Below are positions 15,491 to 41,608 of a stretch of DNA of 64,000 bases, in pieces (positions within the stretch are counted from its first letter, which is position 1; each line of letters opens with the position of its first letter). This DNA comes from Sphingobium sp. TKS. GTDB lineage: Bacteria > Pseudomonadota > Alphaproteobacteria > Sphingomonadales > Sphingomonadaceae. The stretch covers positions 127,001-191,000 of the forward strand of contig NZ_CP005083.1 in the NCBI RefSeq assembly GCF_001563265.1, read 5' to 3'. Position numbers and translations under genes: made by a program. The notes beneath the pieces are model-generated. The model worked only from the letters and a program-made list of their open reading frames with translations. It had not been told where the DNA came from and did no database searches.

Positions 15491-15535
15491 AAAGGCTCCT
15501 CCCTGCGCAAGGTCTAAATCAAACGACACGAGGAT

Positions 15536-15555
15536 GCTGTCATCCGGATGACAGC
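15536..15555. promoter_or_regulatory. Perfect 20-bp palindrome between divergent genes
   Basis: GCTGTCATCCGGATGACAGC is a perfect inverted repeat. It lies 46 bp upstream of the hydroxyacid dehydrogenase start and 44 bp upstream of the ferredoxin oxidoreductase start. A shared operator for the two divergent promoters is the simplest reading. The regulator is unknown; the Crp-family protein two genes away is a candidate. Confidence 0.65.
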
Positions 15556-15598
15556 GCTCTTTTACGCAAAGCATTACGATGGTCCCAGGAGAGACCGA

Positions 15599-19807: not shown

Positions 19808-19942
19808 CCTGGTTTCATGCTGCAAAAGCGCCGGCAAGAAAAGGCAAAACACCTGCCAACCGCTCGAAACAGGAAACTCTCTCCGTCTCAGTGGCCGTCA
19901 CCGTGACAAAAATGGCCTTGACACCGCACGCTCTTGAGATCA

Positions 19943-19956
19943 TTCAACCGGTTGAA
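19943..19956. promoter_or_regulatory. Perfect palindrome TTCAACCGGTTGAA, candidate TetR operator
   Basis: This 14-bp perfect inverted repeat lies between the divergent TetR and TonB receptor genes, 42 bp before the receptor ATG. It is the best match to a motif found at five other places in the window (12048, 31533, 31649, 43803, 43971). Confidence 0.75.
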
Positions 19957-19998
19957 AGTGGGGCTTGGATAAATGAGCCCTCGAAATGGGGAGGATAT

Positions 19999-22269: not shown

Positions 22270-22275
22270 AGCCAT

Positions 22276-22312: not shown

Positions 22313-22399
22313 GCCGTCGCAGATTTCTGGCCCGCCCCCTTGGCAGCTTGGCCGCAGCCCGGCACGTCTGACCGGTATGAAATGAAAGCGAGGATGCCG

Positions 22400-23686: not shown

Positions 23687-23712
23687 CATTGGGCGGCTCA
23701 GCCGGAAACATA

Positions 23713-23725
23713 AGAGTTGACCTGC
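23713..23725 (+). promoter_or_regulatory. AGAGTTGACCTGC element upstream of amidohydrolase A
   Basis: The same 13 bp occurs at 31593-31605 upstream of the paralogous amidohydrolase. It contains TTGACC, which could be a -35 box, but I see no convincing -10 at 17 bp. It could also be an activator site. Confidence 0.35.
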
Positions 23726-23768
23726 TCATGCCGCTTGTCGGTCCAACTTCAGTTTTGAGGAGAGTTTG

Positions 23769-25244
23769 ATGTCTGGCCAAAAGAAAACGCTGATCCGTGG
23801 TGCATCGATTGTCAGCATGGATTCGGCGATCGGCGATCTTCCGCGCGGTGATATCCTGATCGTCGATGATCGCATCGTCGAGGTCGCGCCATCGATTTCG
23901 GCCGACGACGCCGAAATCATCGATGCGACCGGCATGATCGCCAGTCCCGGCTTCGTCGATACCCACCGCCACGTCTGGCAGACGCAGCTGAAGGGCGTGG
24001 CGATCGACTGGAGCCTGTTCGACTATAGCTGTCTGATGCGGTCGATGTATTCGATCTGCTATGAAGCCGACGATGCCTATCTGGGCAACTATGTCGGCGC
24101 GCTCGATGCCATCAACGCCGGCATCACGTCGATCGTCGACCACAGCCATTTGCAGATCACGCCCGAGCATTCGGATGGGCTCGTCAAGGGACTGAAGGAC
24201 GCCGGTATTCGCGGCGTGATGTGTTACGGTCTGTATCGCAACCCCAAGTACAAGCCGGGCGACACGCTCACAGTTGCGCAGGTGGTGGACGAAGTCTCCG
24301 GCCCGCTCGAAGAGTTTCACAAGGTCAATGCGACGCGTGTGCGGGACCAGCATTTTTCGTCAAACGACGGGCTGCTGCGGTTCGGGATCGCCGCGAGCGA
24401 GTTCGTCGTGTCGCCAGGTCCGGAGCCGGTGCTCGAGGAGATGGCGTGGGTACGGACGCTGGATCCCGCGCTCGTCAGCATTCACATCGGGTTCGGTGTG
24501 AACGAAGGGTTCCGCGTCGTTCCCCTGCTCCACGAACATGGCATGCTGGGCGATGACCTCCTCTTCGTTCACGGGGCGCACCTTACCGACTACGATCTGG
24601 CGCTGCTCAAGCAGCATGGCGGATGGCTGTCGACCACGCCCGAGACCGAATTGCAGATGGGCATGGGCTATCCCGTGCTGGAGCGCGTGGTGGAAAGCGG
24701 CAGCACGCCCTCGCTCGGCATCGACATCGCCTCGAACTTCGCGGGCGACATGTTCGCGCAGATGCGCCTGATGCTCCAGACCATGCGCTTCCGCCATTAT
24801 GAGATCGCGAACGCGGGCCTCCCGGTCGCGTCACGCTATGCGGCGCGCAAGATGCTCGAATTCGCCACGCTCGGTGGTGCGCGGGTGATGGGGATGGACA
24901 GCTACACCGGCAGCATCACGCCCGGAAAGAAAGCCGATCTCCTTCTGACGCGGATGGACAGCGTCAATATGAGCCCCGTCATCGATCCCATCGCGGCGCT
25001 AGTCTTCTATGCCGATGCGGGCGACATCGATTCCGTCTGGGTCGATGGCGTGGCGCGCAAGCGGCACGGCAAGCTGACGGGGCTGGACTGGTCGGCCGTC
25101 CGCTCCAGCCTGGTGACCTCGCGGAACGGCATTTACGAGAAGTTCCGCAAGATTCCCGAGCAGCAGATCCGGGACTATTGGTCGCCCCTCTGGAAGATCG
25201 AAATGCCCGCCATCGAGCTTCCGCTTGCCACGGCGGGGGCATGA
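23769..25244 (+). CDS. Amidohydrolase-family metal-dependent hydrolase (module A)
   Basis: A 491-aa member of the ATZ/TRZ-cytosine deaminase-like amidohydrolases. The N-terminal beta-sandwich (TLIRGASIVSMDSAIGD) leads to the metal motif DTHRH (His66 and His68), further His in VDHSHLQ and VHGAHLTD, and an Asp in SLGIDIASNFAG. The family hydrolyses C-N bonds of cyclic or exocyclic amides or deaminates heteroaromatics, but the substrate cannot be deduced. ATG 23769 follows TTGAGGAGAG. Its stop overlaps the start of the fumarylacetoacetase-like gene by four bases. A paralogue with patchy near-identity lies at 31761. Confidence 0.92.
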   Translation: MSGQKKTLIRGASIVSMDSAIGDLPRGDILIVDDRIVEVAPSISADDAEIIDATGMIASPGFVDTHRHVWQTQLKGVAIDWSLFDYSCLMRSMYSICYEADDAYLGNYVGALDAINAGITSIVDHSHLQITPEHSDGLVKGLKDAGIRGVMCYGLYRNPKYKPGDTLTVAQVVDEVSGPLEEFHKVNATRVRDQHFSSNDGLLRFGIAASEFVVSPGPEPVLEEMAWVRTLDPALVSIHIGFGVNEGFRVVPLLHEHGMLGDDLLFVHGAHLTDYDLALLKQHGGWLSTTPETELQMGMGYPVLERVVESGSTPSLGIDIASNFAGDMFAQMRLMLQTMRFRHYEIANAGLPVASRYAARKMLEFATLGGARVMGMDSYTGSITPGKKADLLLTRMDSVNMSPVIDPIAALVFYADAGDIDSVWVDGVARKRHGKLTGLDWSAVRSSLVTSRNGIYEKFRKIPEQQIRDYWSPLWKIEMPAIELPLATAGA

Positions 25245-26545
25245 CTGTGGCTCTCGATCATACGCATGACGCCGCAGCCAGGAGCTGGATCGAAGCCGCC
25301 AATGGGGAGGGGGCCGATTTTCCGATCCAGAACCTGCCGCTTGGCGTGTTCTCGACTGGGTCGGCAGGTCCGCGTTGCGGCGTGGCGATCGGCGATCAGA
25401 TTCTGGATCTGAAGCTGGCCGCGGAGCGCGAGTTGATCGAAGGTCCAGCGGCCGCGACGCTGTCGGTTGAAAACCTCGATCGTCTGTTCGCGCTCGGGCG
25501 CCCAGCGATGCGTGCGCTTCGTCATGCCGTGTTCGCGCTGCTCCGTGAGGACAATGACCGGCGCGACGGCAGCCTGCTGCACCCGATGCGGGATTGCACC
25601 CTGCTCCTGCCGACGTCCGTTCGCAGCTTTACCGATTTCTACGTCGGCATTCATCATGCAATTCGTTGCGCGGACGTTCTTGGGCAAGGCGAGAACCCGC
25701 TTCCGCCCAATTATCACACAATGCCGCTTGGGTATAACGGGCGTGCATCCACCGTCCGCGTAAGCGGGGAAAATGTCCGTCGGCCGATCGGGATGCGCAA
25801 GCCCATCGGTCAGCCGCAGTCAAGCTTCGGTGCCTGCGAATGGCTCGATTTCGAACTGGAAATGGGATTCTACATCGGCCCCGGAAATCCCGTCGGCGAG
25901 CCGGTGGCGATCGATCAGGCAGAAGACCAGGTAGTCGGCTATTGCCTGCTCAACGACTGGTCGGCGCGCGACATCCAGTTGTTCGAGATGGCGCCGCTCG
26001 GGGCCTTTAATTCCAAGAGCCTCAGCACCTCGATTTCCCCCTGGGTCGTCACCGCCGACGCCCTGGAGCCGTTCCGGATCGCGCCGATGAAACGCCTGCC
26101 TGGCGCGGGGCCGGTCCCGGCCTATCTGGATGGGGCAGCGGATCAGGAATGCGGCGGCATCGACGTCACGCTAACCGCGACGCTGTCCACCGCCGCCATG
26201 CGCGCGGCGGGCGCACCGGCGGCCCATCTGCTCGAAACCGGATCGCGCTATCTTTATTGGACCTGCGCGCAGATGGTGGCGCAGCAGTCCGTCACAGGGT
26301 GCTGCCTGATGCCGGGAGACCTGATCGGCACGGGCACGATCTCCGGACCTGATCAGGCCAGTTACGCCAGCCTGTTCGAACTGTCGGTCGGAGGGCGGGA
26401 GCCGCTCGTTCTCCCCAACGGCGAACGGCGGATGTTCCTCGAGGATGGCGACGAGGTCAGCTTTACAGGCCGGTGCAGCCGTGACGGGTTTGTCCCGATC
26501 GGCTTCGGAGCCTGCTCCGCCCAGATCCTGCCGGCGCTCGCGTGA
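25241..26545 (+). CDS. Fumarylacetoacetase-like hydrolase (module A)
   Basis: A 434-aa two-domain protein like fumarylacetoacetase (FahA). It has the N-terminal FPIQNLPLGVF signature, YNGRASTVRVSG, metal-binding acidic residues in LDFELEMGFYIG, and LLNDWSARDIQ. FahA cleaves the C-C bond of acylated 1,3-diketo acids. The tyrosine-pathway partners (homogentisate dioxygenase, maleylacetoacetate isomerase) are absent here, so a different 1,3-dicarbonyl substrate is more likely. ATG 25241 overlaps the amidohydrolase stop. The paralogue at 33279 is similar along its whole length. Confidence 0.92.
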   Translation: MTVALDHTHDAAARSWIEAANGEGADFPIQNLPLGVFSTGSAGPRCGVAIGDQILDLKLAAERELIEGPAAATLSVENLDRLFALGRPAMRALRHAVFALLREDNDRRDGSLLHPMRDCTLLLPTSVRSFTDFYVGIHHAIRCADVLGQGENPLPPNYHTMPLGYNGRASTVRVSGENVRRPIGMRKPIGQPQSSFGACEWLDFELEMGFYIGPGNPVGEPVAIDQAEDQVVGYCLLNDWSARDIQLFEMAPLGAFNSKSLSTSISPWVVTADALEPFRIAPMKRLPGAGPVPAYLDGAADQECGGIDVTLTATLSTAAMRAAGAPAAHLLETGSRYLYWTCAQMVAQQSVTGCCLMPGDLIGTGTISGPDQASYASLFELSVGGREPLVLPNGERRMFLEDGDEVSFTGRCSRDGFVPIGFGACSAQILPALA

Positions 26546-26621
26546 GGCGAGCGCGAAGGATTGTCACGCACCGCGCGGGCCACTTGCAGGAACGTAACTC
26601 TTTGATTCGATCGGATAACGC

Positions 26622-26909
26622 ATGACCATCTACATCGTCAGCGCCATGGATAAACACGACGAGCGCCTCTATGCCGAATATGAGGCGGATGCCCACGCGA
26701 CCTTCGCCGGGCATGACGATATCGAAATTCTGGCCATCTCCGATCACGTCCGCGCCATCGAGGGCGAGCCACCGGGACAACGTATGGTTCTGATCCGCGC
26801 TGCGGACGAGGCAGCGTTCGACCGCTGGTACCACTCGCCCGCGTACCAAGCCGCGAAAGCGAAGCGGCTTGCCGCCTCGCATGCCCGGTTCACGGTGATG
26901 TTGGACTAG
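26622..26909 (+). CDS. DUF1330-family small protein
   Basis: A 95-aa protein with the ferredoxin-like dimeric alpha/beta-barrel pattern of DUF1330 or related domains (IYIVSAMDKHDERLY at the start, WYHSPAYQAAKAKRL near the end). Such proteins are often small isomerase or monooxygenase-like partners in catabolic operons, but no reaction can be assigned. It lies 76 bp after the fumarylacetoacetase-like gene and 22 bp before the MBL-fold gene, so it probably belongs to the same operon. Module B has no equivalent. Confidence 0.8.
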   Translation: MTIYIVSAMDKHDERLYAEYEADAHATFAGHDDIEILAISDHVRAIEGEPPGQRMVLIRAADEAAFDRWYHSPAYQAAKAKRLAASHARFTVMLD

Positions 26910-26931
26910 CCAAGACTTCTTGGAGATATTT

Positions 26932-27936
26932 GTGACGCAAACGTATGAAAAAGGCATGTTTCAGCTCGCCAATGGCTGCTGGGCGTGGCTTCAGCCCGAT
27001 GGTGGCTGGGGGTGGAGCAACGCCGGGTTGATCACCGACGGCGGCTGCTCGATGCTTGTCGACACCTTGTACGACCTAAAGATGACGCGCGAGATGCTTG
27101 CCCGGATGCGCGACACGACGCCTGCAGCTCGCACCATCGATATTCTTGTCAATTCGCACGCGGATGGTGACCACACCTTCGGAAATCAGCTCGTCAGCGG
27201 CGCCCGGATCATCGCGTCCGCCGCGACGGTCGATGAATTCTTCAAGGTGACGCCCGAGACACATCAGCGTATCATCGAAAACGCCGATTTCATGGGAGAC
27301 GGCGCGAAATATGTCGCCGGGTTCATCCGCGACCATGGCTTCACGTTCAGCGACATCACACTGACGCCGCCGACTGAAAGCTACGACCGGGAAGCGATGG
27401 TCAAGGTGGGGGACAAGGACGTGCGCCTGATCAACGTCGGGCCGGCGCATACGGCTGGCGATACGCTGGTGCATTCCATCGCCGACCGCGTCGTCTATAC
27501 CGGCGACATCCTGTTTCTCGGCGTGCATCCGGCGATCTGGGATGGCTCGCTGTCGCGCTGGGTGGAAGCCTGCGACGCGATCCTCGGGCTTGATGTGGAT
27601 GTGATCGTTCCTGGTCACGGCCCTCTGACCGACAAGGCCGGAGTGGCTTTGTTCAAGACATATCTCCAGACCGTGGAGCACGAAACGCGCTTGCGCTTCG
27701 AGGCGGGCATGAGCGTCGAGCAAGCCGCCGCCGACATCCGCTTCGAGCCGCCGTTCGACGCGTGGATTGTCCCCGAGCGGATCGTCGGCAGCGTCAATTT
27801 CCTTTACCGGGAGTGGGGCAGCCCGCTTGCCGAAAACGATTACATGGAAGTGTTCGGCATGGTGGCGCGCTATGCGGACCGGCGGGCAAGATGCCTCGCC
27901 GGGCAGCACGTCGCAGGCTGCGGCCACGCGCACTGA
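26932..27936 (+). CDS. MBL-fold metallo-hydrolase (module A)
   Basis: A 334-aa metallo-beta-lactamase-fold protein. The metal motif reads SHADGDH, so the second His of the usual HxHxDH is Asp (His76, Asp78, Asp80, His81). PAHTAGD, GDILFLGVHPAIW and PGHGP follow at the expected spacing. Related families with HxDGDH or HxNGDH exist and are probably hydrolases or lyases of small molecules; this is not an antibiotic resistance gene. GTG 26932 has GGAG six bases upstream; a TTG at 26920 is an alternative. The paralogue at 30510 keeps the same substitution. Confidence 0.88.
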   Translation: MTQTYEKGMFQLANGCWAWLQPDGGWGWSNAGLITDGGCSMLVDTLYDLKMTREMLARMRDTTPAARTIDILVNSHADGDHTFGNQLVSGARIIASAATVDEFFKVTPETHQRIIENADFMGDGAKYVAGFIRDHGFTFSDITLTPPTESYDREAMVKVGDKDVRLINVGPAHTAGDTLVHSIADRVVYTGDILFLGVHPAIWDGSLSRWVEACDAILGLDVDVIVPGHGPLTDKAGVALFKTYLQTVEHETRLRFEAGMSVEQAAADIRFEPPFDAWIVPERIVGSVNFLYREWGSPLAENDYMEVFGMVARYADRRARCLAGQHVAGCGHAH

Positions 27937-27954
27937 ACCGGGGACACAGGATTG

Positions 27955-28882
27955 TCAGCCACTCGCCGTAAGCAGCGATCCCTGCGGATCCCTGCCAGGC
28001 GCCAGCGCGGCCCAGCGATCCTCCTCACCCAGCAAGCTGCGGCGAAGGTAAGCGAGCGTCACGTCCTGGACCAGCCTTACGCGATCTGGATTTTCGTCGC
28101 TGGTCTCCACGACCTCATAGCCCGATATGCCGCCGAGCATATGTTCGCCGCCATGCAGCGTGAGAAGCGCCTTGCTGCCGGGCGACAGGTAGAAGGGATC
28201 GTAGAACCAGTCGGGACCACGCACGGTGAGCGGTGATCGATCGGCATCGCCCGCGACCATCAATGTCGGGCAATCCATGTGCGTGAACGCCGTGTCGAGG
28301 TACGGCGTGGCCCGTCGTCCAAGGTCGCTCAGGTCGCTGCCGCCCCGGCCGCCTGACGCCAGCAGGATGCCGCAGGCGACGCGGGTGTCGGACATATCCT
28401 CGTCCGCGTCTGACGCCGCCATGCGTGCGCCCGGCAGCATGCTGGTCATCTGCCCGCCGAACGAATGGCCGACGGCGGCGAGGCGGGTGATATCGGCGCG
28501 ATCTGGCAGGCCGGGCACCTGGTGCATGATATCGGCCAGACGATCGATAACCGTTTTTGCGTCCGCGACCCGGATGCCAGATTGCCGGTCGCCGTGGATC
28601 ATCCTCCGCCAGGCCGAGCCGCCGCGCATCAAGGTACGTGAGCTGCACGACCGCGAAACCGTGCGCTGCCCAATAGTCCGCAAGGGGCGCATAACCGTCC
28701 ATCGAGGATCCGAATCCGTGCGAGAACAGCACGACCGGCAACCCCGTTCCCGCAACGGGCGCGGATATCCGAAGCTGAATGTCCTCACCACGGTTGCCGC
28801 CGGGAATCCGGATCGAGCGCACCGAAAGGATCGGCACTGGCGAGTCCATGTTGGCGTCGCGCGGAATCCACGGGCCGGGCAT
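27955..28882 (-). pseudogene. Alpha/beta hydrolase, disrupted by a one-base frameshift
   Basis: The N-terminal part (from ATG 28882, AAGGAG site) reads VVLFSHGFGSSMDGY...LGLAEDDPRRPAIWH. It then leaves frame near 28569-28573, where the expected continuation RVADAKTVIDRLADI appears in another frame and runs through the nucleophile elbow GHSFGG to the stop at 27955. Removing one C or G from the CATCCGGG stretch restores a complete hydrolase of about 308 aa. It is either a pseudogene or a homopolymer sequencing error. It diverges from the HxlR regulator across a perfect palindrome, so it was probably that regulator's target. Confidence 0.85.
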
Positions 28883-28936
28883 AGGCAACTCCTTGGCGGG
28901 CGACCGCCGACCCCTGCCATGACGCTGGCGGGCCGA

Positions 28937-28955
28937 TGGTCTACATTGTAGACCA
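28937..28955. promoter_or_regulatory. Perfect 9-1-9 palindrome, candidate HxlR operator
   Basis: TGGTCTACATTGTAGACCA is a perfect inverted repeat around a single T. It lies between the divergent alpha/beta hydrolase (start 28882) and HxlR gene (start 29015). HxlR/DUF24 repressors bind short palindromes of this sort near their own promoters. Confidence 0.75.
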
Positions 28956-29014
28956 GCTCTAGTTATGGGATCGCGGGCGCGGCACAAGAACGCATATTTT
29001 GGAGACTAGGTCAC

Positions 29015-29401
29015 ATGGAGATGCCTTTGCGGCCGACTGTGCTGCCCGATTGCACCGGCGTCGGCGACGTCCTGTCACGCATCGGCGACAAATGGTCGGT
29101 GCAGATCATTGTCGTGCTGCATGACAGCGCGCAGCGCTTCAACGGCGTGAAGCGGGGCGTGCCCGGAATCTCGCAGCAGATGCTCACCCGCACGCTCAGG
29201 AACCTCGAACGGGATGGCCTGGTCGATCGCACTGTCCGCGCGAGCAAGCCGCCCCAGGTCGAATACGTGCTGACGCCGCTCGGGCGGTCCCTTGCCGGGC
29301 CCGTGCGCGCGCTTGCGGCCTGGGCGATCGAGCATCGCGCGGCGATATGCGACAGCCGAACGACGTTCGATGCGAGCGAGGACGAAAACGCGCATCGATA
29401 G
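29015..29401 (+). CDS. HxlR-family transcriptional regulator
   Basis: A 128-aa winged-helix protein of the HxlR/DUF24 family. It has an N-terminal cysteine (Cys13 in [10 protein letters not shown]), [34 protein letters not shown] as recognition helix, and LTPLGRSL. In YodB- and QorR-type members a Cys at this place senses quinones or diamide, so a redox or quinone-sensing role is plausible. It faces the broken hydrolase across a perfect palindrome and is convergent with a quinone oxidoreductase gene. An in-frame ATG at 29021 is an alternative start. Confidence 0.92.
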
Positions 29402-29438
29402 CAGGCGCGGCGCTGGATGCCGGGCCTGCTTTTTCTCG

Positions 29439-30413
29439 TTACCGCGGATCGATGATGGTCGAGCCGATGGTCTGGCGGTTTTCCAAGGCGACATGCGCCT
29501 TGGCGGTTTCCGTAAGCGGGAAACGCTGACCGACCTTGATCTTGAGGACGCCCTTGGCGGCCAGATCGTACATGGCGGCGGCAGCCTTCAGCGCGACCTG
29601 GCGGTCGGTGTAATGCGTCGGCAGGATCGGGCGCGCCAGATACAAGGCCTTGGGCGCCAGGGTGTCGAAGATATCGTCGATCGAGACGCGGCCGGACGAG
29701 TGGCCGAAATTGACCATCAGGCCCCAGGTGCGCAGGCAATCGAGCGAGCCTTGGAACGTGTCCTTGCCGACGGAATCGTAAACGACGTCTACGCCCTTGC
29801 CGCCGGTGATCTCCTTCACGCGCTCGACGAAATTCTCGGTCTTGTTGTCGATGACGTAATCCGCCCCGCTTTCACGCGCGAGCGCGACCTTTTCTTCGGA
29901 GCTCACGGTCGCGATCACGGTGGCGCCGATATGCTTTGCCCATTGGACCGCGATCTGCCCGACGCCGCCCGCTGCGCCATGGAACAGGATCGTCTCGCCC
30001 GGCTGGAGCTTGTGCGTCATGTGGAAGAGATAATAGACCGTCATGCCCTTCAGCGTGATCGCGGCGGCCGTGTCGAAATCGACGCCATCGGGAATAGGAA
30101 ACACGATCGAGGCGGCGACGTTCCGTTCTTCGGAGAAGGCGCCCGTGGCACCCATGTACGCGACGCGGGCACCGAGTTTGAATTCCGTGACGCCGGCGCC
30201 GACCTCCGTGACGACGCCCGCCGCTTCCTGTCCCAGCACGAAGGGCGTGGGAATATCGTAATGGCCCTCGCGGATCAGCACATCGACGAAGTTCAGGCCG
30301 ATGGCTTCATGCCGCACCTTGATCTCGCCCGCGCCGGGCGGGGGCACATCCCAATCCTCCACCTGCATTTTGTCGGCGCCGCCGACTTCGTTCATCACGA
30401 TCACTTTCGTCAT
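29439..30413 (-). CDS. NADPH:quinone oxidoreductase (MDR family)
   Basis: A 324-aa zinc-independent quinone oxidoreductase resembling Qor. Seen are NFVDVLIREGHYDIPTPFV, VLGQEAAGVV, the NADPH-binding HGAAGGVGQIAVQWAKHIG and VVYDSVGKDTFQGSL. It should reduce quinones or enones with NADPH in the cytoplasm. Its 3' end is 38 bp from the convergent HxlR regulator, recalling qor-HxlR pairs where the regulator senses quinones. It lies upstream of nothing on its own strand, so it is probably monocistronic. Confidence 0.93.
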   Translation of the reverse strand: MTKVIVMNEVGGADKMQVEDWDVPPPGAGEIKVRHEAIGLNFVDVLIREGHYDIPTPFVLGQEAAGVVTEVGAGVTEFKLGARVAYMGATGAFSEERNVAASIVFPIPDGVDFDTAAAITLKGMTVYYLFHMTHKLQPGETILFHGAAGGVGQIAVQWAKHIGATVIATVSSEEKVALARESGADYVIDNKTENFVERVKEITGGKGVDVVYDSVGKDTFQGSLDCLRTWGLMVNFGHSSGRVSIDDIFDTLAPKALYLARPILPTHYTDRQVALKAAAAMYDLAAKGVLKIKVGQRFPLTETAKAHVALENRQTIGSTIIDPR

Positions 30414-30509
30414 TCACTTTTCCTTTCAGATGCCAGATCTTCATCCTTCGCCCGGACTGGTCGGGCGGAGCGAATGAGGGCCGGGGCGGCTGGGGAACCA
30501 CGGGGTCGG

Positions 30510-31511
30510 TCAATGCTGGTGGTTGCTGTCCGAGCACCCGCAGGCCGCCACCGCCGGGTTGTCGGCGGCCATTTTCGCGACGAGACCGAAAATCTCGAGG
30601 AAGTCCGTCCGCGCGTCAGGGTTGCCCCATTCGCGGTAGAGGAAGTTGACGCTCCCGACCAAGCGCTCCGGCAGCAGCCAGTCGTCATAGGGCGGTGGAA
30701 AGGCGATGTCGGCCGCCGCCTGCTCCACCGACATGCCCGCCTCGAAACGCTTGCGTGTTTCCGTCTCCAGGATTTCGATGTAGCGCTTGAAGGTTCTTAC
30801 CCCCTGCTTGTCCGTCACCGGGCCGTGTCCGGGCACGACCAGGTCCACGTCGAGGGACAGGATGTGATCGCAAGCGGCCGACCAGCCCTGGATCGACCCT
30901 TCCCAGATCGCCGGATGCACGCCGATGAACAGGATGTCTGCCGTGAAGACGACCCGATCCTGAACGCTGTGGACCAGCGTGTCGCCGGCGGTATGCGCCG
31001 GGCCGACATTGTAGAGAAGCACATCCTTGTCGCCCACCTTGAGGGCGTGGCGGCGATCGTATGTTTCCGTGGGCGGCGTGAACTCGACGCCGGTGAAATC
31101 AAAGCCATTGCCGCGAACGAAGCCCGCGACATACTTTGCACCTTCGCCCAGGACCTCGGCATTTTCGACCATGGCCTGCGCCTTGTCTGGTGTCAGCCCC
31201 GTGAATTCGCGCGCGGTCTCCTGCGAGGCAATGATGCGTGCGCCCCGCACAAGCTGGTTGCCGAAGGTGTGATCGGCGTCGGCGTGGGAGTTGACGAGGA
31301 TGTCGATCGTCGCTGCGGAGGGCGACGCATCGCGCATGGCCGCAAGCATCTCGGCAGTCGATGCCAGATCAAAGAGCGTGTCGACCAATAGCGATTGTCC
31401 GCCGTCGACGATCAGGCCGGCGTTGGAAAAACCCCAGCCTCCATCGGGCTGTAGCCAAGCCCAACTGCCGCTGCCCAGATCCCTCAGCCCCTTACTATAT
31501 TCCGCAGCCAT
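30510..31511 (-). CDS. MBL-fold metallo-hydrolase (module B)
   Basis: A 333-aa paralogue of the MBL protein at 26932, colinear throughout (WAWLQPDGGWGFSNAGL, SHADADHTFGNQLV, PAHTAGDTLVHS, GVHPAIWEGS, PGHGPVTDKQGV). The His-to-Asp change in the metal motif (HxDxDH, His76/Asp78/Asp80/His81) is conserved, so it is a family feature rather than decay. It is transcribed away from amidohydrolase B, and its start is 22 bp from a CAATCGGTTG palindrome. It probably acts on the same class of intermediate as its paralogue. Confidence 0.9.
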   Translation of the reverse strand: MAAEYSKGLRDLGSGSWAWLQPDGGWGFSNAGLIVDGGQSLLVDTLFDLASTAEMLAAMRDASPSAATIDILVNSHADADHTFGNQLVRGARIIASQETAREFTGLTPDKAQAMVENAEVLGEGAKYVAGFVRGNGFDFTGVEFTPPTETYDRRHALKVGDKDVLLYNVGPAHTAGDTLVHSVQDRVVFTADILFIGVHPAIWEGSIQGWSAACDHILSLDVDLVVPGHGPVTDKQGVRTFKRYIEILETETRKRFEAGMSVEQAAADIAFPPPYDDWLLPERLVGSVNFLYREWGNPDARTDFLEIFGLVAKMAADNPAVAACGCSDSNHQH

Positions 31512-31532
31512 ATTCCTCTCCTACAGCATTAT

Positions 31533-31546
31533 ATCAATCGGTTGAA
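31533..31546. promoter_or_regulatory. ATCAATCGGTTGAA palindrome upstream of MBL gene B
   Basis: The right half GGTTGAA matches the perfect site at 19943 exactly and the left half has two changes. It ends 22 bp from the MBL start codon on the minus strand, a typical repressor position. Confidence 0.6.
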
Positions 31547-31592
31547 TGACATGCCGACAGGCTTGTGCTCCGCCCGGACAAGCTACGATATT

Positions 31593-31605
31593 AGAGTTGA
31601 CCTGC
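31593..31605 (+). promoter_or_regulatory. AGAGTTGACCTGC element upstream of amidohydrolase B
   Basis: Identical to the 13 bp at 23713-23725. It sits 168 bp before the amidohydrolase ATG, compared with 56 bp in module A. Confidence 0.35.
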
Positions 31606-31648
31606 GGCAACGCACTTGACTCATAACACCACAATGTTCATCAATACA

Positions 31649-31662
31649 ACCAACCGATTGAA
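31649..31662. promoter_or_regulatory. ACCAACCGATTGAA site upstream of amidohydrolase B
   Basis: It shares 17 identical bases (31646-31662) with the site at 43968-43984 upstream of scoA. A further partial copy, AACTGGTTGG, follows at 31665-31674. The core CAACCGATTG has one mismatch pair. Confidence 0.6.
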
Positions 31663-31760
31663 AGAACTGGTTGGCTATCCGCTTTTTCCGGCGTTTCGGT
31701 TGCGAACGGTTCAATCCGCGGAACGTCCGCGCTTGAGGCCAAGGGTGAGAGGAAGGCTGA

Positions 31761-33221
31761 ATGGAAATGCGTAGAACGCTAATTCGTGGCGCCGCCATCG
31801 TCTCCATGGATCTCGCCATCGGCGATCTGCCGCGTGGCGACATTCTGATCGAGGGAAACCGCATCGTTGGTGTTGCCCCAGTTATAGAAGTGGGGGATGC
31901 CGAGACCGTCGATGCCGAAGGAATGATCGCGAGCCCGGGCTTCGTCGATACACACCGGCACGTCTGGCAGACGCAGCTAAAGGGCGTGGCAATAGACTGG
32001 AGCCTGTTCGACTATATCTGCCTCATGCGAAGCATGTACTCCGTTTGCTACACGCCGGAAGATGCGTATCTTGGCAATTACTTCGGAACGCTCGACGCCA
32101 TCAATGCCGGCGTCACTTCCATTGTCGATCATAGCCATTTACAGATCACGCCCGAACATTCCGATGCGTTGGCCAAGGGCATGCTGGATTCGGGGATTCG
32201 CGGCGTGTTCTGCTACGGCGCATATCGTAACCCGAAATACATGCCCGGAGATTTGCTAACCCCTGAGGCGATCATCAACGACATTGCCGGCCCGCTGGAG
32301 GATTTCCACCGGCGCAATGCTCCACGCGTGCGCGAGAAATATTTCCCGTCCAACGACGGTCTGGTCCGCTTCGGGATCGCCTCGAGCGAATTCCCGACCG
32401 CCGCGCTGGCCGAGCCGATGCTGGAGGAATTGGCCTGGGCGCGCACGCTCGATCCTGCCGTGATCAGCATGCACGCGGGCGTGGGCGTGAACGAGCATTT
32501 CCGGATGGTTCCGATCCTGCACGAGCACGGCCAGCTGGGCAACGATCTGCTGTTCGTGCACGGCGCGCACCTGACCGATGAGGACCTGGTCCTGTTGCGC
32601 GACCATGGCGGCTGGCTGTCGACGACGCCCGAGACCGAATTGCAGATGGGCATGGGCTATCCCGTGCTGGAGCGCGTAGCGGCGAGCGGCAGCACGCCCT
32701 CGCTCGGCATCGATATCGCATCGAACTTTGCGGGCGACATGTTCGCGCAGATGCGCCTGATGCTTCAGGCCATGCGCTTCCGCCATTTCGAGCATGCGAA
32801 TGCCGGCCTGCCGGCGGCGTCGCGCTATGCCGCGCGCAAGATGCTCGAATTCGCGACCATCGGCGGCGCGACCGTGATGGGTCTGGAGACGATCACGGGG
32901 AGCCTGACGCCGGGCAAGCGCGCCGACATCATCCTGACCCGCACCGACAGCGTTCATATGAGCCCCGTATTCGATCCCGTCGCGGCGCTGGTCTTCTACG
33001 CGGATGCGGCGGACGTCGATTCCGTCTGGATTGACGGTATCGCTCGCAAGCGCGGCGGCAGGCTCGTCGGCGTCGACTGGCCTGCGGGCCACGCTGCCCT
33101 CTCGGCCTCGCGCGATGCGATCTACGCGAAGTTCGGCCAGATTTCGGAGCGCGAAATCCGTGCCACCTGGGCGCCGCTTTGGGGGCTCGAAACGCGGGCC
33201 ATGGACCCGGCTGACGCATAG
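31761..33221 (+). CDS. Amidohydrolase-family metal-dependent hydrolase (module B)
   Basis: A 486-aa paralogue of the enzyme at 23769, with the same metal ligands (DTHRH, VDHSHLQ, VHGAHLTD, SLGIDIASNFAG). Nucleotide similarity is uneven: 53 bases at 32625-32677 are identical to 24636-24688 while the 5' parts differ clearly, which points to gene conversion or strong local constraint. It is divergent from MBL gene B, and the shared 250-bp region carries two copies of the CAACCG-type palindrome. It is followed by a fumarylacetoacetase-like gene after 57 bp, not by the overlap seen in module A. Confidence 0.92.
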   Translation: MEMRRTLIRGAAIVSMDLAIGDLPRGDILIEGNRIVGVAPVIEVGDAETVDAEGMIASPGFVDTHRHVWQTQLKGVAIDWSLFDYICLMRSMYSVCYTPEDAYLGNYFGTLDAINAGVTSIVDHSHLQITPEHSDALAKGMLDSGIRGVFCYGAYRNPKYMPGDLLTPEAIINDIAGPLEDFHRRNAPRVREKYFPSNDGLVRFGIASSEFPTAALAEPMLEELAWARTLDPAVISMHAGVGVNEHFRMVPILHEHGQLGNDLLFVHGAHLTDEDLVLLRDHGGWLSTTPETELQMGMGYPVLERVAASGSTPSLGIDIASNFAGDMFAQMRLMLQAMRFRHFEHANAGLPAASRYAARKMLEFATIGGATVMGLETITGSLTPGKRADIILTRTDSVHMSPVFDPVAALVFYADAADVDSVWIDGIARKRGGRLVGVDWPAGHAALSASRDAIYAKFGQISEREIRATWAPLWGLETRAMDPADA

Positions 33222-33278
33222 CCGGTCTAATCACGCATTTACGAATTCGCACAAAAACGGTAGTTTTCTGGAGGATTT

Positions 33279-34571
33279 ATGGACTATACGCACGAAGCGG
33301 CACGCAGGAGCTGGGTCGCTTCGGCCAATGACGCGACGACTGACTTCCCGCTGCAAAACCTGCCGCTTGGAATTTTCCGTGTCGCCGACGGCCCGGCACG
33401 TTGCGGCGTGGCGATCGGCGACAAGGTATTCAATCTTTCCCGCGCCGCGCAGGACGACCTGCTGGATGGCACGTTCGCTTTTCTGGCTGCCGCCGAGAGT
33501 CTCGATCCCTTGTTCGCGATGGGGCGGCAGGCGCTGACCAGCCTACGGCACCAGGTTTTCGACCTGCTGGACAGTGGGAGCGCGACATTGCCGGGCGAGC
33601 GCAGAGAATCCTATCTCCACCCAATGACGGAATGCACGATGCTGCTCCCGGGCGGCATCCGCAGCTATACGGATTATGTCGCCAGCGTGCATCACATCGC
33701 GCGGTGCAGCCGCATCATGAGCCTGCCCAACGAAATCCCCATCAACTATAAATGGCAGCCGCTGGCTTATAACGGCCGCGCCTCGACCGTCCGCGTCAGC
33801 GGCCAGGCCGTCCGTCGTCCGTCCGGCAACAAGGGCCAGCTGGCGCCCGGCGCCACGCCCGAGTTCGGCCCCACCGACCAGCTCGACTTCGAGCTGGAGC
33901 TCGGCTTCTTCATCGGCGCGGGCAACCCGATCGGCGAGCCGGTTCCGGTCGCCAGGGCGAGCGAGCAAGTGGCCGGCTTCGTCCTGCTGAACGACTGGTC
34001 GGCGCGCGATCTGCAATTCTGGGAGTTCGCCCCGCTCGGGCCGAACATCTGCAAGAATTTCTGCACGTCGATTTCTCCGTGGGTGCTCACCCCCGATGCG
34101 CTCGAGCCATTCCGCTGTGCGCTGCCGCAGCGCTTGGCGGAGGATCCTCGCCCCGCATTCCTCGACGACGAGGCAGACATGGCGCGCGGCGGCTTCGACA
34201 TCGCGATGACGGCGCTGCTGCAAACGGACGCCATGCGCCGAAACAGCGAAGAGGCGACTGCGATCATTTCGACCAATGCCAATCACTTCTATTGGTCGGT
34301 CGCGCAGATGATCGCGGCGCAGACGGTGACGGGCTGCGCGCAGGATCCTGGCGACCTGATCGGTGCGGGGACGGCATCCGGCCCGGAAGACGCGCAATCC
34401 GGATGTTTGCTGGAGCGGACATATGGTGGCGCCAACCCTATCCACTTGCCCAATGGAGAAACGCGTACCTATTTGCAGGGCGGTGACGTGGTGACGTTCC
34501 GCGGCCGCTGCGCGCGCGACGGATATCGCAGCATCGGCTTTGGAGAATGCGTCGGCCAGGTGATCGACTGA
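33279..34571 (+). CDS. Fumarylacetoacetase-like hydrolase (module B)
   Basis: A 430-aa FahA-like protein, a full-length paralogue of the one at 25241 (FPLQNLPLGIF, AYNGRASTVRVSG, LDFELELGFFIGAGNPIGE, LLNDWSARDLQF, TSISPWVLTPDALEPFR). Metal-binding acidic residues are kept. ATG 33279 has TGGAGGA upstream. Its stop overlaps the next start (TGATG at 34569-34573), coupling it to the acetoacetate decarboxylase-like gene. C-C cleavage of a 1,3-dicarbonyl followed by decarboxylation would be a logical pair (inference). Confidence 0.92.
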   Translation: MDYTHEAARRSWVASANDATTDFPLQNLPLGIFRVADGPARCGVAIGDKVFNLSRAAQDDLLDGTFAFLAAAESLDPLFAMGRQALTSLRHQVFDLLDSGSATLPGERRESYLHPMTECTMLLPGGIRSYTDYVASVHHIARCSRIMSLPNEIPINYKWQPLAYNGRASTVRVSGQAVRRPSGNKGQLAPGATPEFGPTDQLDFELELGFFIGAGNPIGEPVPVARASEQVAGFVLLNDWSARDLQFWEFAPLGPNICKNFCTSISPWVLTPDALEPFRCALPQRLAEDPRPAFLDDEADMARGGFDIAMTALLQTDAMRRNSEEATAIISTNANHFYWSVAQMIAAQTVTGCAQDPGDLIGAGTASGPEDAQSGCLLERTYGGANPIHLPNGETRTYLQGGDVVTFRGRCARDGYRSIGFGECVGQVID

Positions 34572-35377
34572 TGCGGTTCCTGGAAAACATCCGATACCGC
34601 ATGCCGGTGTCGTTCGGCCCGGCGCCCGGCCCGCGCCAGCAAGTGGGCGGCGCGCGCGTCGTCGATCCCATGGCGCGCGTGCAAGGCGTCTCGACCCGGT
34701 TCCTCACCGATGCCGACAAGCTGGAGGCGCTTCTGCCGCCGGGCATGAGCCTCGACGGGGAGCCGGTCGTCACGGTCGAATTGCTGTTCCTCACCGAGCT
34801 CGCCTGGCTGGCGGGGCGCGGGTACAACAGCCTGGGTGTGAAGTTTCCCGTCGTCTGCAAGGGCCGGACGGAGACGGTACGCGGCCCCTATCTCTCCGTC
34901 CTATGGGAGAACATGGCCGATCCGATGATCACCGGCCGAGAGGAGCTCGGATATGCCAAGCTCTATTGCGAAATCGATCAACCGGCGATCTCGAAAGACC
35001 GGCAGCGCTACGCCGCAAGCTGGCAGCGCCACCGCTTTTTCGAGATGGAGCTGACGGATATCGCGCCATCCAGCGATTTGCCGAACCGCGAAGGCGACGG
35101 CCTGTTGCACTACCGCTATGTCCCGGCGATCGGTCGGCCCGGGGTGGCGGATTTCGCCGGGCCGACGCTCTCGCCACCGTCCCCGCATGTCGAATTGCTC
35201 GATCACAAGACGGCGCAGGGCCAGCTCCGCTTCATACGTTCGTCCTTCGAAGAGCTGCCGACGCTGGTGCATATCGTGAATGCCCTGGCCGGTCTTCCGA
35301 TCGTCGAATACCGCGGCGCCAGCATCACCGAATGGCGGCAGGACGCGGAGTTTGCAAACCAGCGCCTGGTGGATTGA
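34571..35377 (+). CDS. Acetoacetate decarboxylase-like protein
   Basis: A 268-aa protein of the acetoacetate decarboxylase-like superfamily (RMPVSFGPAPGPRQQ near the N-terminus; VVTVELLFLTELAWLAG; GREELGYAKLYCEI, the region that carries the active site in true decarboxylases). Relatives include decarboxylases and hydratase- or aldolase-like enzymes using a Schiff-base lysine, and Lys in GYAKLY may be that residue. ATG 34571 overlaps the stop of the fumarylacetoacetase-like gene. It is probably the next step in module B; the exact reaction is uncertain. Confidence 0.82.
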   Translation: MRFLENIRYRMPVSFGPAPGPRQQVGGARVVDPMARVQGVSTRFLTDADKLEALLPPGMSLDGEPVVTVELLFLTELAWLAGRGYNSLGVKFPVVCKGRTETVRGPYLSVLWENMADPMITGREELGYAKLYCEIDQPAISKDRQRYAASWQRHRFFEMELTDIAPSSDLPNREGDGLLHYRYVPAIGRPGVADFAGPTLSPPSPHVELLDHKTAQGQLRFIRSSFEELPTLVHIVNALAGLPIVEYRGASITEWRQDAEFANQRLVD

Positions 35378-35434
35378 AGCGTCGAACCTTTCCCGGACTT
35401 GCCATGAACTCCAGACCCATCGAAGGATTTTGAA

Positions 35435-36562
35435 ATGACGCAAGCTTTTGCTGGCCTACAGTTGCAGTCGACCGTTTCCTCGGAAGGAGTTCTGACTCTG
35501 GATCTGGCCAAGGGCAATTGGGCAGATCCGGCCGCGGGCGAGATCATCGTCCGTATCGAAGCGTCACCGCTCAACCCGTCGGATCTCGCCAACGTCTTCG
35601 GTCCGGCGGATCTTTCGACGCTCGAAAGCGGAAAAACGGACGCTGGCCCGGTGCTGACCGCGCGCATTCCGGCCGGTGCGATGGGTGGGCTGGCAGCGCG
35701 TATCGGCCAGCCCCTGGTTGGCGGCAACGAGGGCGCCGGCACGGTGGTGGTGGCGGGATCTGGTGCTGAGCATTTACTTGGTAAGCTGGTGGGTACGTTC
35801 GGTGGCAGAATGTATGCCCAATATCGCAAGCTCCCGGTGGCCGACTGCATCCCCTTGCCGGAAGGCGCGACCGCGCAACAGGGCGCGGCGATGTTCATCA
35901 ACCCGCTCACGGCGCTTTGCTTCGTGGAAACCATGAAGGCCGAAGGGCACAGCGCGATTGTGCATTTCGCGGCGGCGTCAAGCCTCGGGCAGATGCTCAA
36001 TCGCATCTGCCTCAAAGACGGCGTTCCACTCGTCAACGTGGTCCGGTCCGCGGAGCAGGTGGCGCTCCTGCGTTCCGCAGGGGCCGAGCATGTCCTGAAT
36101 TCGTCCGATCCGGATTTCATCTCCCAGCTCATCGATGCCGTGGAAGCGACCGGCGCGACGCTGGCGTTCGATCCGATCGGCGGCGGCCGCCAGGCCGCGC
36201 AGGTCCTCGACGCGATGGAGAAGGCCGCGCTGCGCAAGATGACTAGCTACGACCGTTATGGATCGGGCAAGTTCAAGCAGGTCTATATCTACGGCATGCT
36301 CGACAGCGCGCCCGTGGTGATTGACGGCTGGTTCGGTTATGCCTGGTCGGTCGGCGGGTGGCTGTTCTCCTATTCGCTCGCAAGACTCGGCGCCGATGGT
36401 GCGGCACGGCTGAAGCAGCGCATTGCGGACGAACTCACGACCACCTTCGCCAATTCCTATATTGACGAATTGACCTTCGAAACGATGCTCCAGCCCGATA
36501 ACGTCCGCGCTTTCATGCGACGGTCGACCGGAGGAAAGTATCTCCTCCGCCCTCAGGGCTGA
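35435..36562 (+). CDS. Zinc-binding dehydrogenase-like oxidoreductase (MDR family)
   Basis: A 375-aa MDR protein. It has SPLNPSDLANVFG in the GroES-like domain, LVGGNEGAGTVV, and an atypical coenzyme region (VHFAAASSLGQMLNRICL) in place of the usual GxGxxG. It lies 57 bp after the decarboxylase-like gene with an AAGGA ribosome site, in the same operon. It probably reduces or oxidises a carbonyl or enone intermediate with NAD(P)(H). The weak glycine motif leaves the cofactor preference open. Confidence 0.85.
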   Translation: MTQAFAGLQLQSTVSSEGVLTLDLAKGNWADPAAGEIIVRIEASPLNPSDLANVFGPADLSTLESGKTDAGPVLTARIPAGAMGGLAARIGQPLVGGNEGAGTVVVAGSGAEHLLGKLVGTFGGRMYAQYRKLPVADCIPLPEGATAQQGAAMFINPLTALCFVETMKAEGHSAIVHFAAASSLGQMLNRICLKDGVPLVNVVRSAEQVALLRSAGAEHVLNSSDPDFISQLIDAVEATGATLAFDPIGGGRQAAQVLDAMEKAALRKMTSYDRYGSGKFKQVYIYGMLDSAPVVIDGWFGYAWSVGGWLFSYSLARLGADGAARLKQRIADELTTTFANSYIDELTFETMLQPDNVRAFMRRSTGGKYLLRPQG

Positions 36563-36589
36563 TATCGTCGCCGTGATACGACAAGCTCG

Positions 36590-37660
36590 ATGTCTGCAAT
36601 CTTTCTTCCTCGCGCGATGCGGATCGGCGGCGGTGCGCTGAACGAACTGCCCGCCGCATTGGCGCAACTTGGGCTAAAGGCACCTGCAATCCTGACTGAC
36701 GGGTTCCTGGGGAGCAATGGTGCGCTCGACCGGCTGTTGACGATCCTGGCCGACGCCGGGATCGATGCACGCGCTTATCGCGACGTTATCGCCGATCCTA
36801 CGGTCGCTTCCGTGAACATGGCGGTCGATTTTGTCATCGGGGGCAGTCATGATTGCATTATTGGCTTTGGCGGCGGCAGCCCGATCGACACGGCAAAGGC
36901 AGTCACCGTCCTGGCCGCCCGAGGTGGCACCATGCGCGAGCGCAAGGCGCCGCATCAGGAAGACGAACCCGGTTTTCCCGTGATTGCGATCCCGACAACG
37001 GCAGGCACAGGCTCTGAAGCGACGCGGTTTACGATCATCACGGACAAGACGAACGACGAGAAAATGCTTTGTGCTGGTCTCGCCTATCTGCCCGTGCTAG
37101 CAATCGTCGATTACGAACTCACCCTAACGAAGCCGCTGCGCCTTACCGCGGATACCGGTCTCGATGCGCTCACGCATGCCGTCGAAGCGTATGTTTCCCG
37201 GCTTGCCAACCCTTTCTCAGACAGCATGGCGCTCGCCGCGATGGCAGCAATCTGGCCGAATCTGCGCCGCGTATGCGAGTATCCTGCTGATCGCCCCGCG
37301 CGCGAGGCGATGATGGTCGGCTCGCTGCAGGCTGGGATCGCTTTTTCCAATTCCTCCGTGGCATTGGTTCACGGTATGAGCCGGCCGCTTGGCGCGCATT
37401 TCCATATCGCGCACGGACTTTCAAACGTTATGCTCCTGCCCGTAGTGACGGCGTGGTCGGCACCTTCGGCGCTAGGTCGCTACGCAGATTGCGCGCGTGC
37501 GATGGGGCTGGCGGAAACGGGGGAAGGAGACCAGTCGACCGTGGCGTGTCTTGTCGAGGCACTGCGCGATGCTAACCGAGAGCTTTCAGTCCCGAGCCCC
37601 AGAACATACGGGATTGATGAAGCGCGCTGGATCGAACTCTTGCCGTTGATGGGGGGATAG
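36590..37660 (+). CDS. Iron-containing alcohol dehydrogenase, C-terminus cut by an amber codon
   Basis: A group III alcohol dehydrogenase of 356 aa. NAD binding is shown by GFGGGSPIDTAKAV and IPTTAGTGSEATRF; metal ligands lie in DTGLDALTHAVEAY and in the GMSRPLGAHFHIAHGLSNV helix. It stops at TAG 37658-37660. The same frame then continues for 28 codons (ALASGSPGNNPR...LYREAWA) to TGA at 37747, exactly the usual C-terminal tail of the family, so the stop looks like a nonsense mutation (for example CAG to TAG). The catalytic core is intact, so activity may survive. Confidence 0.9.
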   Translation: MSAIFLPRAMRIGGGALNELPAALAQLGLKAPAILTDGFLGSNGALDRLLTILADAGIDARAYRDVIADPTVASVNMAVDFVIGGSHDCIIGFGGGSPIDTAKAVTVLAARGGTMRERKAPHQEDEPGFPVIAIPTTAGTGSEATRFTIITDKTNDEKMLCAGLAYLPVLAIVDYELTLTKPLRLTADTGLDALTHAVEAYVSRLANPFSDSMALAAMAAIWPNLRRVCEYPADRPAREAMMVGSLQAGIAFSNSSVALVHGMSRPLGAHFHIAHGLSNVMLLPVVTAWSAPSALGRYADCARAMGLAETGEGDQSTVACLVEALRDANRELSVPSPRTYGIDEARWIELLPLMGG

Positions 37661-37796
37661 GCGCTGGCTTCCGGCTCTCCCGGCAACAATCCCCGAATAC
37701 CAGACCACGATGCGATCCAGTCGCTTTATCGCGAAGCGTGGGCCTGATCTTGGGCACTATAAAGGGCGAGAGCGAAGGGAATGAGGAAACCGCTCA

Positions 37797-41583: not shown

Positions 41584-41608
41584 GGTGCATTCTCCAAATC
41601 GGTTCGAA

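What the first reader, a model, noticed from the sequence alone, without database searches (positions are those of the whole stretch)
23769..37747. Two paralogous modules: amidohydrolase + fumarylacetoacetase-like + MBL-fold
Module A (23769-27936) and module B (30510-37747) share three paralogous enzymes but differ in gene order, orientation and extra genes (DUF1330 in A; acetoacetate decarboxylase-like, MDR and Fe-ADH in B). This combination matches no standard pathway I can name. The chemistry (C-N hydrolysis, C-C cleavage of 1,3-dicarbonyls, decarboxylation) suggests breakdown of a polyketide- or acylphloroglucinol-like compound. The two sets may act on different side chains or stereoisomers.
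Basis: inference. Interest (0 to 1): 0.72.

Follow-up and report, generated by a model that had tools for sequence, protein, structure and literature searches.

The report
Twin beta-dicarbonyl hydrolase gene sets
A bacterium carries two diverged copies of a three-enzyme gene set that recurs in related bacteria, is separate from its normal tyrosine pathway, and probably helps break 1,3-dicarbonyl pieces out of aromatic compounds whose identity is still unknown.

Summary
Modules A (23769-27936) and B (30510-37660) encode the same three enzyme types: amidohydrolase (AH, 74% identical), fumarylacetoacetase-like (FAH, 51%) and MBL-fold (67%). They are old paralogs. The trio recurs: four short contigs apparently carry all three, as do loci of Sphingomonas Root710, Sphingobium and Parvibaculum. 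Of 29 other Alphaproteobacterial MBL genes, 9 have a PF01557 gene within 1.5 kb (0.2 expected). The window's FAHs group apart from the organism's own tyrosine FahA, which lies in an hmgA-fahA-maiA-type operon. They keep catalytic and metal residues but lose two substrate-contact residues. AH has the atrazine-hydrolase fold and metal ligands but lacks the deaminase glutamate (121 of 122 homologs), so C-N hydrolysis is poorly supported. Neighbours that recur at some loci (BKACE, 3-oxoacid CoA-transferase, thiolase, PF04199 cyclase, VanA-type Rieske oxygenase, acyl-CoA ligase) suggest phenolic breakdown via beta-keto acids. Best reading, about 0.5: AH and FAH are successive metal-dependent hydrolases of a ring-derived 1,3-dicarbonyl. 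Against: most MBL loci (20 of 29) and most AH loci (17 of 26) lack a nearby FAH. None of our ten literature searches listed a paper assigning the set a substrate. Substrate and chemistry are inferred.

The parts
14333..15610 (-). FMN-dependent alpha-hydroxyacid dehydrogenase (PF01070), possible pathway partner
   Evidence: 43% to the hydroxyacid oxidase near AH and IOR in Rhodococcus opacus
15548..19066 (+). indolepyruvate ferredoxin oxidoreductase family protein (IOR)
   Evidence: IOR also precedes AH in Sphingomonas Root710 L009 (72% id) and adjoins AH in R. opacus L094 (40%)
19133..19852 (-). TetR regulator
19750..22269 (+). probable TonB-dependent receptor
   Evidence: 26% tblastn match to the gene annotated TonB-dependent receptor in L092; clusters with ORFs at 7 other AH loci (family F4); no Pfam search was run on this ORF
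22340..23686 (+). MFS transporter
23769..25244 (+). AH_A, amidohydrolase, NF006056/PRK08204 subfamily
   Evidence: (448.1 bits, cut-off 391)
25241..26545 (+). FAH_A, fumarylacetoacetase-like, overlaps the AH_A stop (ATGA)
   Evidence: (TIGR01266 428.4 bits, cut-off 375.3)
26622..26909 (+). DUF1330 protein
26920..27936 (+). MBL_A, MBL-fold metallohydrolase
27955..28987 (-). alpha/beta-hydrolase-like gene read in two overlapping frames, probably disrupted
   Evidence: weak PF07224 match below cut-off
29439..30413 (-). MDR1, quinone-reductase-like medium-chain dehydrogenase
   Evidence: 324.7 bits, cut-off 348
30510..31511 (-). MBL_B, MBL-fold metallohydrolase, divergent from AH_B
31761..33221 (+). 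AH_B, amidohydrolase
   Evidence: (454.3 bits, cut-off 391)
33279..34571 (+). FAH_B, fumarylacetoacetase-like
34547..35377 (+). acetoacetate-decarboxylase-like protein (PF06314)
35435..36562 (+). MDR2, medium-chain dehydrogenase; 42% to an MDR beside AH in Croceicoccus
36590..37660 (+). Fe-dependent alcohol dehydrogenase, cut by an in-frame TAG about 29 codons early
44016..45355 (+). CoA-transferase subunits A and B (PF01144 twice); subunit A 68% to that in the second Root710 AH/FAH/MBL cluster

Best explanation
A duplicated catabolic gene set for the 1,3-dicarbonyl (beta-keto) stage of an aromatic plant or polyketide-type compound. Proposed route: (1) TonB/MFS uptake; (2) removal of methyl groups or side chains by other genes; (3) AH, an atrazine-hydrolase-fold metalloenzyme that has lost the deaminase glutamate, opens or cleaves a ring-derived 1,3-dicarbonyl by metal-activated water; (4) FAH cuts the open 1,3-diketone (retro-Claisen C-C hydrolysis) into an acid and a beta-keto acid; (5) MBL hydrolyses an ester, lactone or thioester intermediate; (6) the beta-keto acid is consumed by CoA-transferase plus thiolase here (BKACE at some relatives' loci, perhaps the ADC-like protein in module B). 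Shown: gene content, paralogy, recurrence, FAH grouping, residue changes. Inferred: every reaction, the order and the substrate.
For: Recurrence: 9 of 29 non-own MBL genes have a listed PF01557 place within 1.5 kb, 0.2 expected. AH, FAH and MBL together at Root710, Sphingobium and Parvibaculum loci. Four short contig lengths shared by AH, MBL and FAH clusters. FAH group apart from FahA; positions of mouse-FAH R142 and Y244 changed in 13 of 13 linked FAHs, catalytic and metal positions kept. Deaminase Glu absent in 121 of 122 AH homologs. Beta-keto-acid enzymes: BKACE in L011, L012 and 5 of 29 MBL loci; CoA-transferase in the window, L010 and L187. VanA-type Rieske in L185 and L187. Precedent: a PF04199-type 'cyclase' cleaves dihydrophloroglucinol by retro-Claisen hydrolysis in a cluster with a BKACE (PMC10470551, passages).
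Against: No activity, expression or substrate data. In 20 of 29 MBL loci no FAH was found within 9 kb, and 8 of 29 have a GST-type neighbour instead. FAH lay within 9 kb in 9 and MBL in 7 of 26 AH loci (some contigs end early). Across all 80 named AH loci the window's own FAH and MBL queries matched 5 and 9, so the link is confined to the closer AH relatives. None of the 29 MBL loci has this AH subfamily nearby; 4 have a different amidohydrolase, from two family labels only. FAH partners are mostly the short form. The Root710 FAH, which is linked, falls outside the 24-row FAH group; that group has only 80% support and the linked label needs 3 changes on the tree. R142 is also lost in many FAHs outside the group. 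The window's BKACE lies 14 kb upstream and its VanA_C genes on other contigs.
Confidence: 0.5

Rival explanations
1. AH is a non-canonical ring-cleaving oxygenase of amidohydrolase fold, and FAH hydrolyses its ring-fission product, as proposed for KpiC and KpiD in 4-hydroxypyridine breakdown.
For: KpiC (PF01979, 475 aa) is reported as an extradiol dioxygenase with an FAH-family protein KpiD in the same cluster (PMC7356986: passages and section 3.4). AH lacks the deaminase Glu. No ring-cleavage dioxygenase family was matched among the module genes given to Pfam.
Against: KpiC's closest characterised relative is enamidase, whereas AH's nearest solved relatives are atrazine hydrolase and deaminases. 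The KpiC sequence was not compared.
Confidence: 0.15
2. One reading: AH hydrolyses a C-N bond (cyclic amide, enamine or N-heterocycle) and FAH then acts on the product.
For: The fold and nearest solved relatives are deaminases and atrazine hydrolases; metal ligands H65, H67, H238, D318 are kept.
Against: Glu at the AtzA E246 position is absent in 121 of 122 homologs and 80 of 80 loci. No amidase or heterocycle-specific family was matched among the module genes given to Pfam.
Confidence: 0.15
3. Loose catabolic island: FAH and MBL are linked to each other, but AH is only a frequent passenger, and no single three-step pathway exists.
For: Three different amidohydrolase types accompany MBL-FAH in different bacteria. 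In G398, G503, G519, G592 and G669 AH lies on another contig than MBL.
Against: AH-FAH adjacency is kept in both modules, in Root710 L009 and in Parvibaculum L029, L031 and L033. AH and MBL co-occur across 384 genomes (5 of 10 against 24 of 374, Fisher p 0.0003, not corrected for kinship).
Confidence: 0.15

Closest known systems
Fumarylacetoacetase of tyrosine catabolism (FahA, TIGR01266)
   Same: Family, catalytic and metal residues; FAH_A passes the equivalog cut-off (FAH_B was not given to that search).
   Different: Separate group in the tree, no hmgA/maiA beside it, R142 and Y244 positions changed; the organism has its own FahA operon.
Atrazine chlorohydrolase / triazine-guanine deaminase branch of the amidohydrolases (AtzA, TrzN)
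   Same: Predicted fold and metal-ligand pattern.
   Different: Catalytic-Glu position is not Glu; E210 after strand 4 is invariant in the 122 closer homologs.
Anaerobic phloroglucinol cluster of Clostridium scatologenes (PGR, DPGC, TfD, TAL)
   Same: Retro-Claisen hydrolase with BKACE, dehydrogenase and thiolase; some relatives of our set have PF04199 cyclase or BKACE genes.
   Different: The words amidohydrolase and metallo do not occur in the paper's main text; the pathway is anaerobic; no PF04199 match among the window module genes given to Pfam.
kpi cluster for 4-hydroxypyridine in Arthrobacter IN13
   Same: An amidohydrolase-family protein plus an FAH-family protein in one catabolic cluster.
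   Different: No MBL gene in the part of Table 1 seen; KpiC nearest to enamidase; KpiD (288 aa) is of the short form.
Sphingomonad lignin pathway to vanilloyl acetic acid (VceA/VceB)
   Same: Sphingomonads and methoxyaromatic beta-keto acid chemistry (PMC11837543, passages).
   Different: No VceA or VceB sequence was compared; that VceA resembles BKACE is recalled only.

Membership tests
Tyrosine-pathway fumarylacetoacetase | Catalytic and metal residues (mouse D126, H133, E199, E201, D233, K253, E364; roles recalled) | tested here: met
   Conserved in FAH_A, FAH_B and all 13 linked FAHs
Tyrosine-pathway fumarylacetoacetase | Substrate-contact R142 and Y244 (roles recalled) | tested here: not met
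   G/M in FAH_A, S/F in FAH_B; 0 of 13 linked keep either; own FahA keeps both; of 106 other rows 51 keep R and 43 keep Y
Tyrosine-pathway fumarylacetoacetase | Operon with hmgA and maiA | tested here: not met
   Not among the module genes; HgmA, FahA and GST genes lie together on contig C2
ATZ/TRZ-type deaminases and aminohydrolases | HxH, His and Asp metal ligands | tested here: met
   H65, H67, D318 in 121 of 122 (1 gap each), H238 in 122 of 122; all four in 80 of 80 loci
ATZ/TRZ-type deaminases and aminohydrolases | Catalytic Glu of the HxxE motif (AtzA E246; role recalled) | tested here: not met
   Glu in 1 of 122 proteins (P0105) and 0 of 80 loci
Canonical zinc MBL hydrolases | HxHxDH motif | tested here: not met
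   Second His is Asp in 81 and Asn in 40 of 121 rows (one row repeats MBL_B); other ligands kept
Phloroglucinol degradation cluster | PF04199-type dihydrophloroglucinol cyclohydrolase | tested here: not met
   No match among the module genes given to Pfam; present in L030 by Pfam and in L019, L020, L135 by tblastn
Phloroglucinol degradation cluster | BKACE (triacetate lyase type) | tested here: inconclusive
   BKACE at 8507-9445 passes NF053538 (523.6 bits, cut-off 430; ORF from 8432) but lies 14 kb upstream of module A
kpi 4-hydroxypyridine cluster | KpiC orthology of AH | not tested
   KpiC sequence was not obtained

The most novel reading that the evidence does not exclude
AH is a retired deaminase turned C-C hydrolase: an amidohydrolase-fold enzyme that hydrolytically opens a ring-derived (dearomatised) cyclic 1,3-diketone without oxygen, feeding FAH. 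Aerobic sphingomonads would then have a hydrolytic polyphenol-ring route analogous to, but of different enzyme families from, the anaerobic phloroglucinol pathway.
Probability: 0.2. Interest if true: 0.75.

Novelty: new variant of a known kind. Interest (0 to 1): 0.5.

Why it matters
Automatic annotation calls relatives of these genes fumarylacetoacetase and deaminase-like proteins (names), which hides a recurrent set that is probably neither. If the set is a 1,3-dicarbonyl route, it would fill a gap in how aerobic bacteria finish off plant phenolics or polyketides, add a new reaction to the amidohydrolase superfamily, and give a handle (FAH group plus AH without Glu) for finding such pathways in metagenomes.

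Tried and rejected
(1) Tyrosine/homogentisate pathway: rejected for the modules, because HgmA, FahA and GST genes lie together elsewhere. (2) Polyketide cyclase role of MBL (JGI calls some relatives 'cyclase'): two Streptomyces plasmid loci with about 36% MBL homologs showed no annotated polyketide synthase within 8 kb; the paper search was swamped by the word stem 'activ'. (3) Cupin shared by the Root710 and R. opacus loci (a beta-diketone dioxygenase idea): the two cupins gave no blastp match at 1e-5. (4) Curcumin route: the Sphingobium reductases reach 298 and 289 bits against a cut-off of 440 for the CurA model, so it stays a lead. (5) Syringate/vanillate O-demethylase: the Root710 GCV_T protein scores 494 bits against a cut-off of 800 (DesA) and 428 against 580 (LigM), so family-like only. 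(6) Literature: ten searches were answered; none listed a paper that by title or abstract start assigns this three-gene set a substrate. Three papers were opened: PMC10470551 and PMC11837543 by passages, PMC7356986 by passages and section 3.4.
Full report
What is there. The two modules exist as described and share three paralogous enzymes: AH 73.7%, FAH 51.2%, MBL 66.8% identical. In module A AH_A and FAH_A overlap by an ATGA, followed by DUF1330 and MBL_A on the same strand. In module B MBL_B is divergent, and AH_B-FAH_B are followed by ADC-like, MDR and Fe-ADH genes.

Not the tyrosine enzyme. FAH_A passes the NCBIfam fumarylacetoacetase cut-off (428.4 against 375.3; FAH_B was not given to that call). 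The genome has 14 PF01557 places, among them a FahA beside HgmA and a GST on another contig; FAH_A and FAH_B are 48% and 43% identical to it. A tree of 124 FAHs puts FAH_A, FAH_B and 13 'linked' FAHs in one 24-row group, split from 98 rows that include the organism's FahA (support 80 and 98; midpoint root). 'Linked' means that the FAH cluster shares its longest-contig length with an AH or MBL cluster; that equal length means the same contig is an inference. One of them is the PP1Y chromosome and one a 654-kb contig, where distance is unknown. Against a clean grouping: the Root710 FAH, which does sit between AH and MBL, and the EMRT-2 FAH fall outside both sides on long branches, and the linked label needs 3 changes (32 of 500 shuffles as low). 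Catalytic and metal positions are kept. The positions of mouse R142 and Y244 are changed in 13 of 13 linked FAHs; among the 106 other database rows 51 keep R and 43 keep Y, so the loss is not unique to the group. Residue roles are recalled.

The amidohydrolase. Both copies pass the subfamily model NF006056 'hypothetical protein'. An AlphaFold model (mean pLDDT 87) matches AtzA, TrzN and deaminases. Metal ligands are conserved. The position aligned to AtzA's E246 is Glu in 1 of 122 proteins (120 database hits plus AH_A and AH_B) and 0 of 80 loci. E210, just after strand 4, is invariant in the 122 proteins, but in the 80 loci it is E in 30 and G in 48. The role of E246 is recalled. This argues against an ordinary deaminase but does not show what the enzyme does.

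The MBL. Its HxHxDH motif has Asp (81) or Asn (40) in place of the second His in 121 rows, one of which repeats MBL_B; the other ligands are kept. The best solved relatives by sequence are an MBL protein without stated function (8d2z) and chlorothalonil dehalogenase (6uxu).

Recurrence. In a draw of 385 Alphaproteobacterial genomes MBL occurs in 30, the window's own included. In 9 of the other 29 a PF01557 place lies within 1.5 kb (its listing was cut, so 9 is a lower bound). With 163 PF01557 places in these genomes 0.2 is expected (P about 2e-13 if genomes were independent, which they are not). In 4 of 29 a PF01979 gene of another subfamily lies within 4 kb (0.57 expected, P 0.002), and 5 of 29 have a BKACE within about 6 kb. 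These 4 and 5 carry only two family labels (f102, f120), so they are few independent events. In the other 20 of 29 no FAH was found within 9 kb, and 8 of 29 have a GST-type gene near: this MBL has other partners too. The AH subfamily occurs in 11 of 385 (E 1e-90) and in 2 of 298 genomes of the window's family (E 1e-100), own genome included both times. Of 26 named AH loci (L009-L034) 9 have FAH and 7 MBL within 9 kb; across all 80 named AH loci (L009-L088) the window's own FAH and MBL queries matched in 5 and 9. Contig lengths 53835, 22550, 36496 and 15855 appear in the AH, MBL and FAH lists alike, as does the PP1Y chromosome (3911486; distance unknown); 246267 carries a 94% AH_A, a 91% AH_B and a 73% FAH_B relative, so the two-copy state is probably not unique. 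Only the best 120 hits of each list were visible.

Neighbours. Sphingomonas Root710 (L009) has IOR, FAD-linked oxidase, TetR, TonB, AH, FAH and MBL in an order like the window's 15548-27936. R. opacus plasmid L094 has FAD oxidase, hydroxyacid oxidase, IOR, AH and short FAH together, with MBL 11 kb away. Two Sphingobium loci have MBL, TonB, FAH, BKACE, a CurA-like reductase and AH. The second Root710 cluster (L030/L187) has CoA-transferase, thiolase, VanA-type Rieske, MBL, FAH, a DesA/LigM-like protein, AH and PF04199 cyclase. Croceicoccus (L010/L185) has thiolase, CoA-transferase, AH and MDR2-like, and about 13 kb on Fe-ADH (77% to the window's), FAH, MBL, acyl-CoA ligase and VanA-type Rieske. 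A Novosphingobium EMRT-2 plasmid has VOC, FAD oxidoreductase, FAH, MBL, long FAH and an amidohydrolase without significant similarity to AH. The window has a CoA-transferase pair at 44016-45355, a BKACE at 8507-9445, and a VOC plus short FAH just upstream. The genome's three VanA_C places lie on contigs C2 and C8, not C1.

Reading. At several of these loci a beta-keto-acid-consuming enzyme (CoA-transferase/thiolase or BKACE) lies near FAH; module B has an ADC-like protein. O-demethylase-type genes in two clusters suggest methoxylated phenolics. In the anaerobic phloroglucinol pathway a 'cyclase' family enzyme does retro-Claisen ring opening in a cluster with a BKACE, and its authors note the likeness of amide C-N and diketone C-C hydrolysis (PMC10470551, passages). 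In 4-hydroxypyridine breakdown an amidohydrolase-family protein is reported as a ring-cleaving dioxygenase with a proposed FAH-family partner (PMC7356986). From these, AH as a ring-opening or diketone-cleaving enzyme and FAH as a C-C hydrolase is the best-supported reading at about 0.5; the substrate is open. IOR with a hydroxyacid dehydrogenase suggests that one product is a 2-hydroxy or 2-oxo acid (inference).

Verdict. Real, recurrent in a limited set of bacteria, probably mis-annotated, and without an assigned substrate in our ten searches; chemistry unproven. It is built from known enzyme superfamilies, hence a new variant of a known kind.

Noticed in passing
window 36590-37747: Fe-ADH gene has an in-frame TAG at 37658-37660, about 29 codons before the end seen in a Croceicoccus relative.
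   Followed up: partly
window 27955-28987 (-): Alpha/beta-hydrolase-like gene split over two overlapping frames, probably disrupted.
   Followed up: no
window 37797-41801: Hydroxyacid dehydrogenase, acyl-CoA dehydrogenase and thiolase ORFs each lack an N-terminal part or domain in their Pfam matches, suggesting decay or sequence errors downstream of module B.
   Followed up: no
window 55-10015 and L098:16994-18794: A second catabolic cluster: VOC-family protein and short FAH just upstream of the window, LysR, ADH, SDR, TonB receptor, OYE-type reductase, FAD hydroxylase (PRK06126), BKACE over the 3,5-dioxohexanoate model cut-off, then a truncated thiolase.
   Followed up: partly
G000:C1:956969-957544 and C1:2529370-2529945: Two PF01557 places with identical scores and frame lengths, possibly a duplicated gene in the genome.
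   Followed up: no
L147, L155, L156, L158: MBL, FAH, an amidohydrolase of another subfamily and BKACE together in other Alphaproteobacteria. L156 also has DHDPS-family, GNAT and SGL-lactonase genes by Pfam; L155 shares these families by clustering only.
   Followed up: partly
L132-L134, L136-L138, L140, L159: The same MBL family sits near a GST-type gene, without FAH, in 8 of 29 anonymous genomes, often with CMD-type genes: a second, unexplored context.
   Followed up: no
window 49268-50155: Glyoxalase II-like protein (HAGH_C plus Lactamase_B).
   Followed up: no
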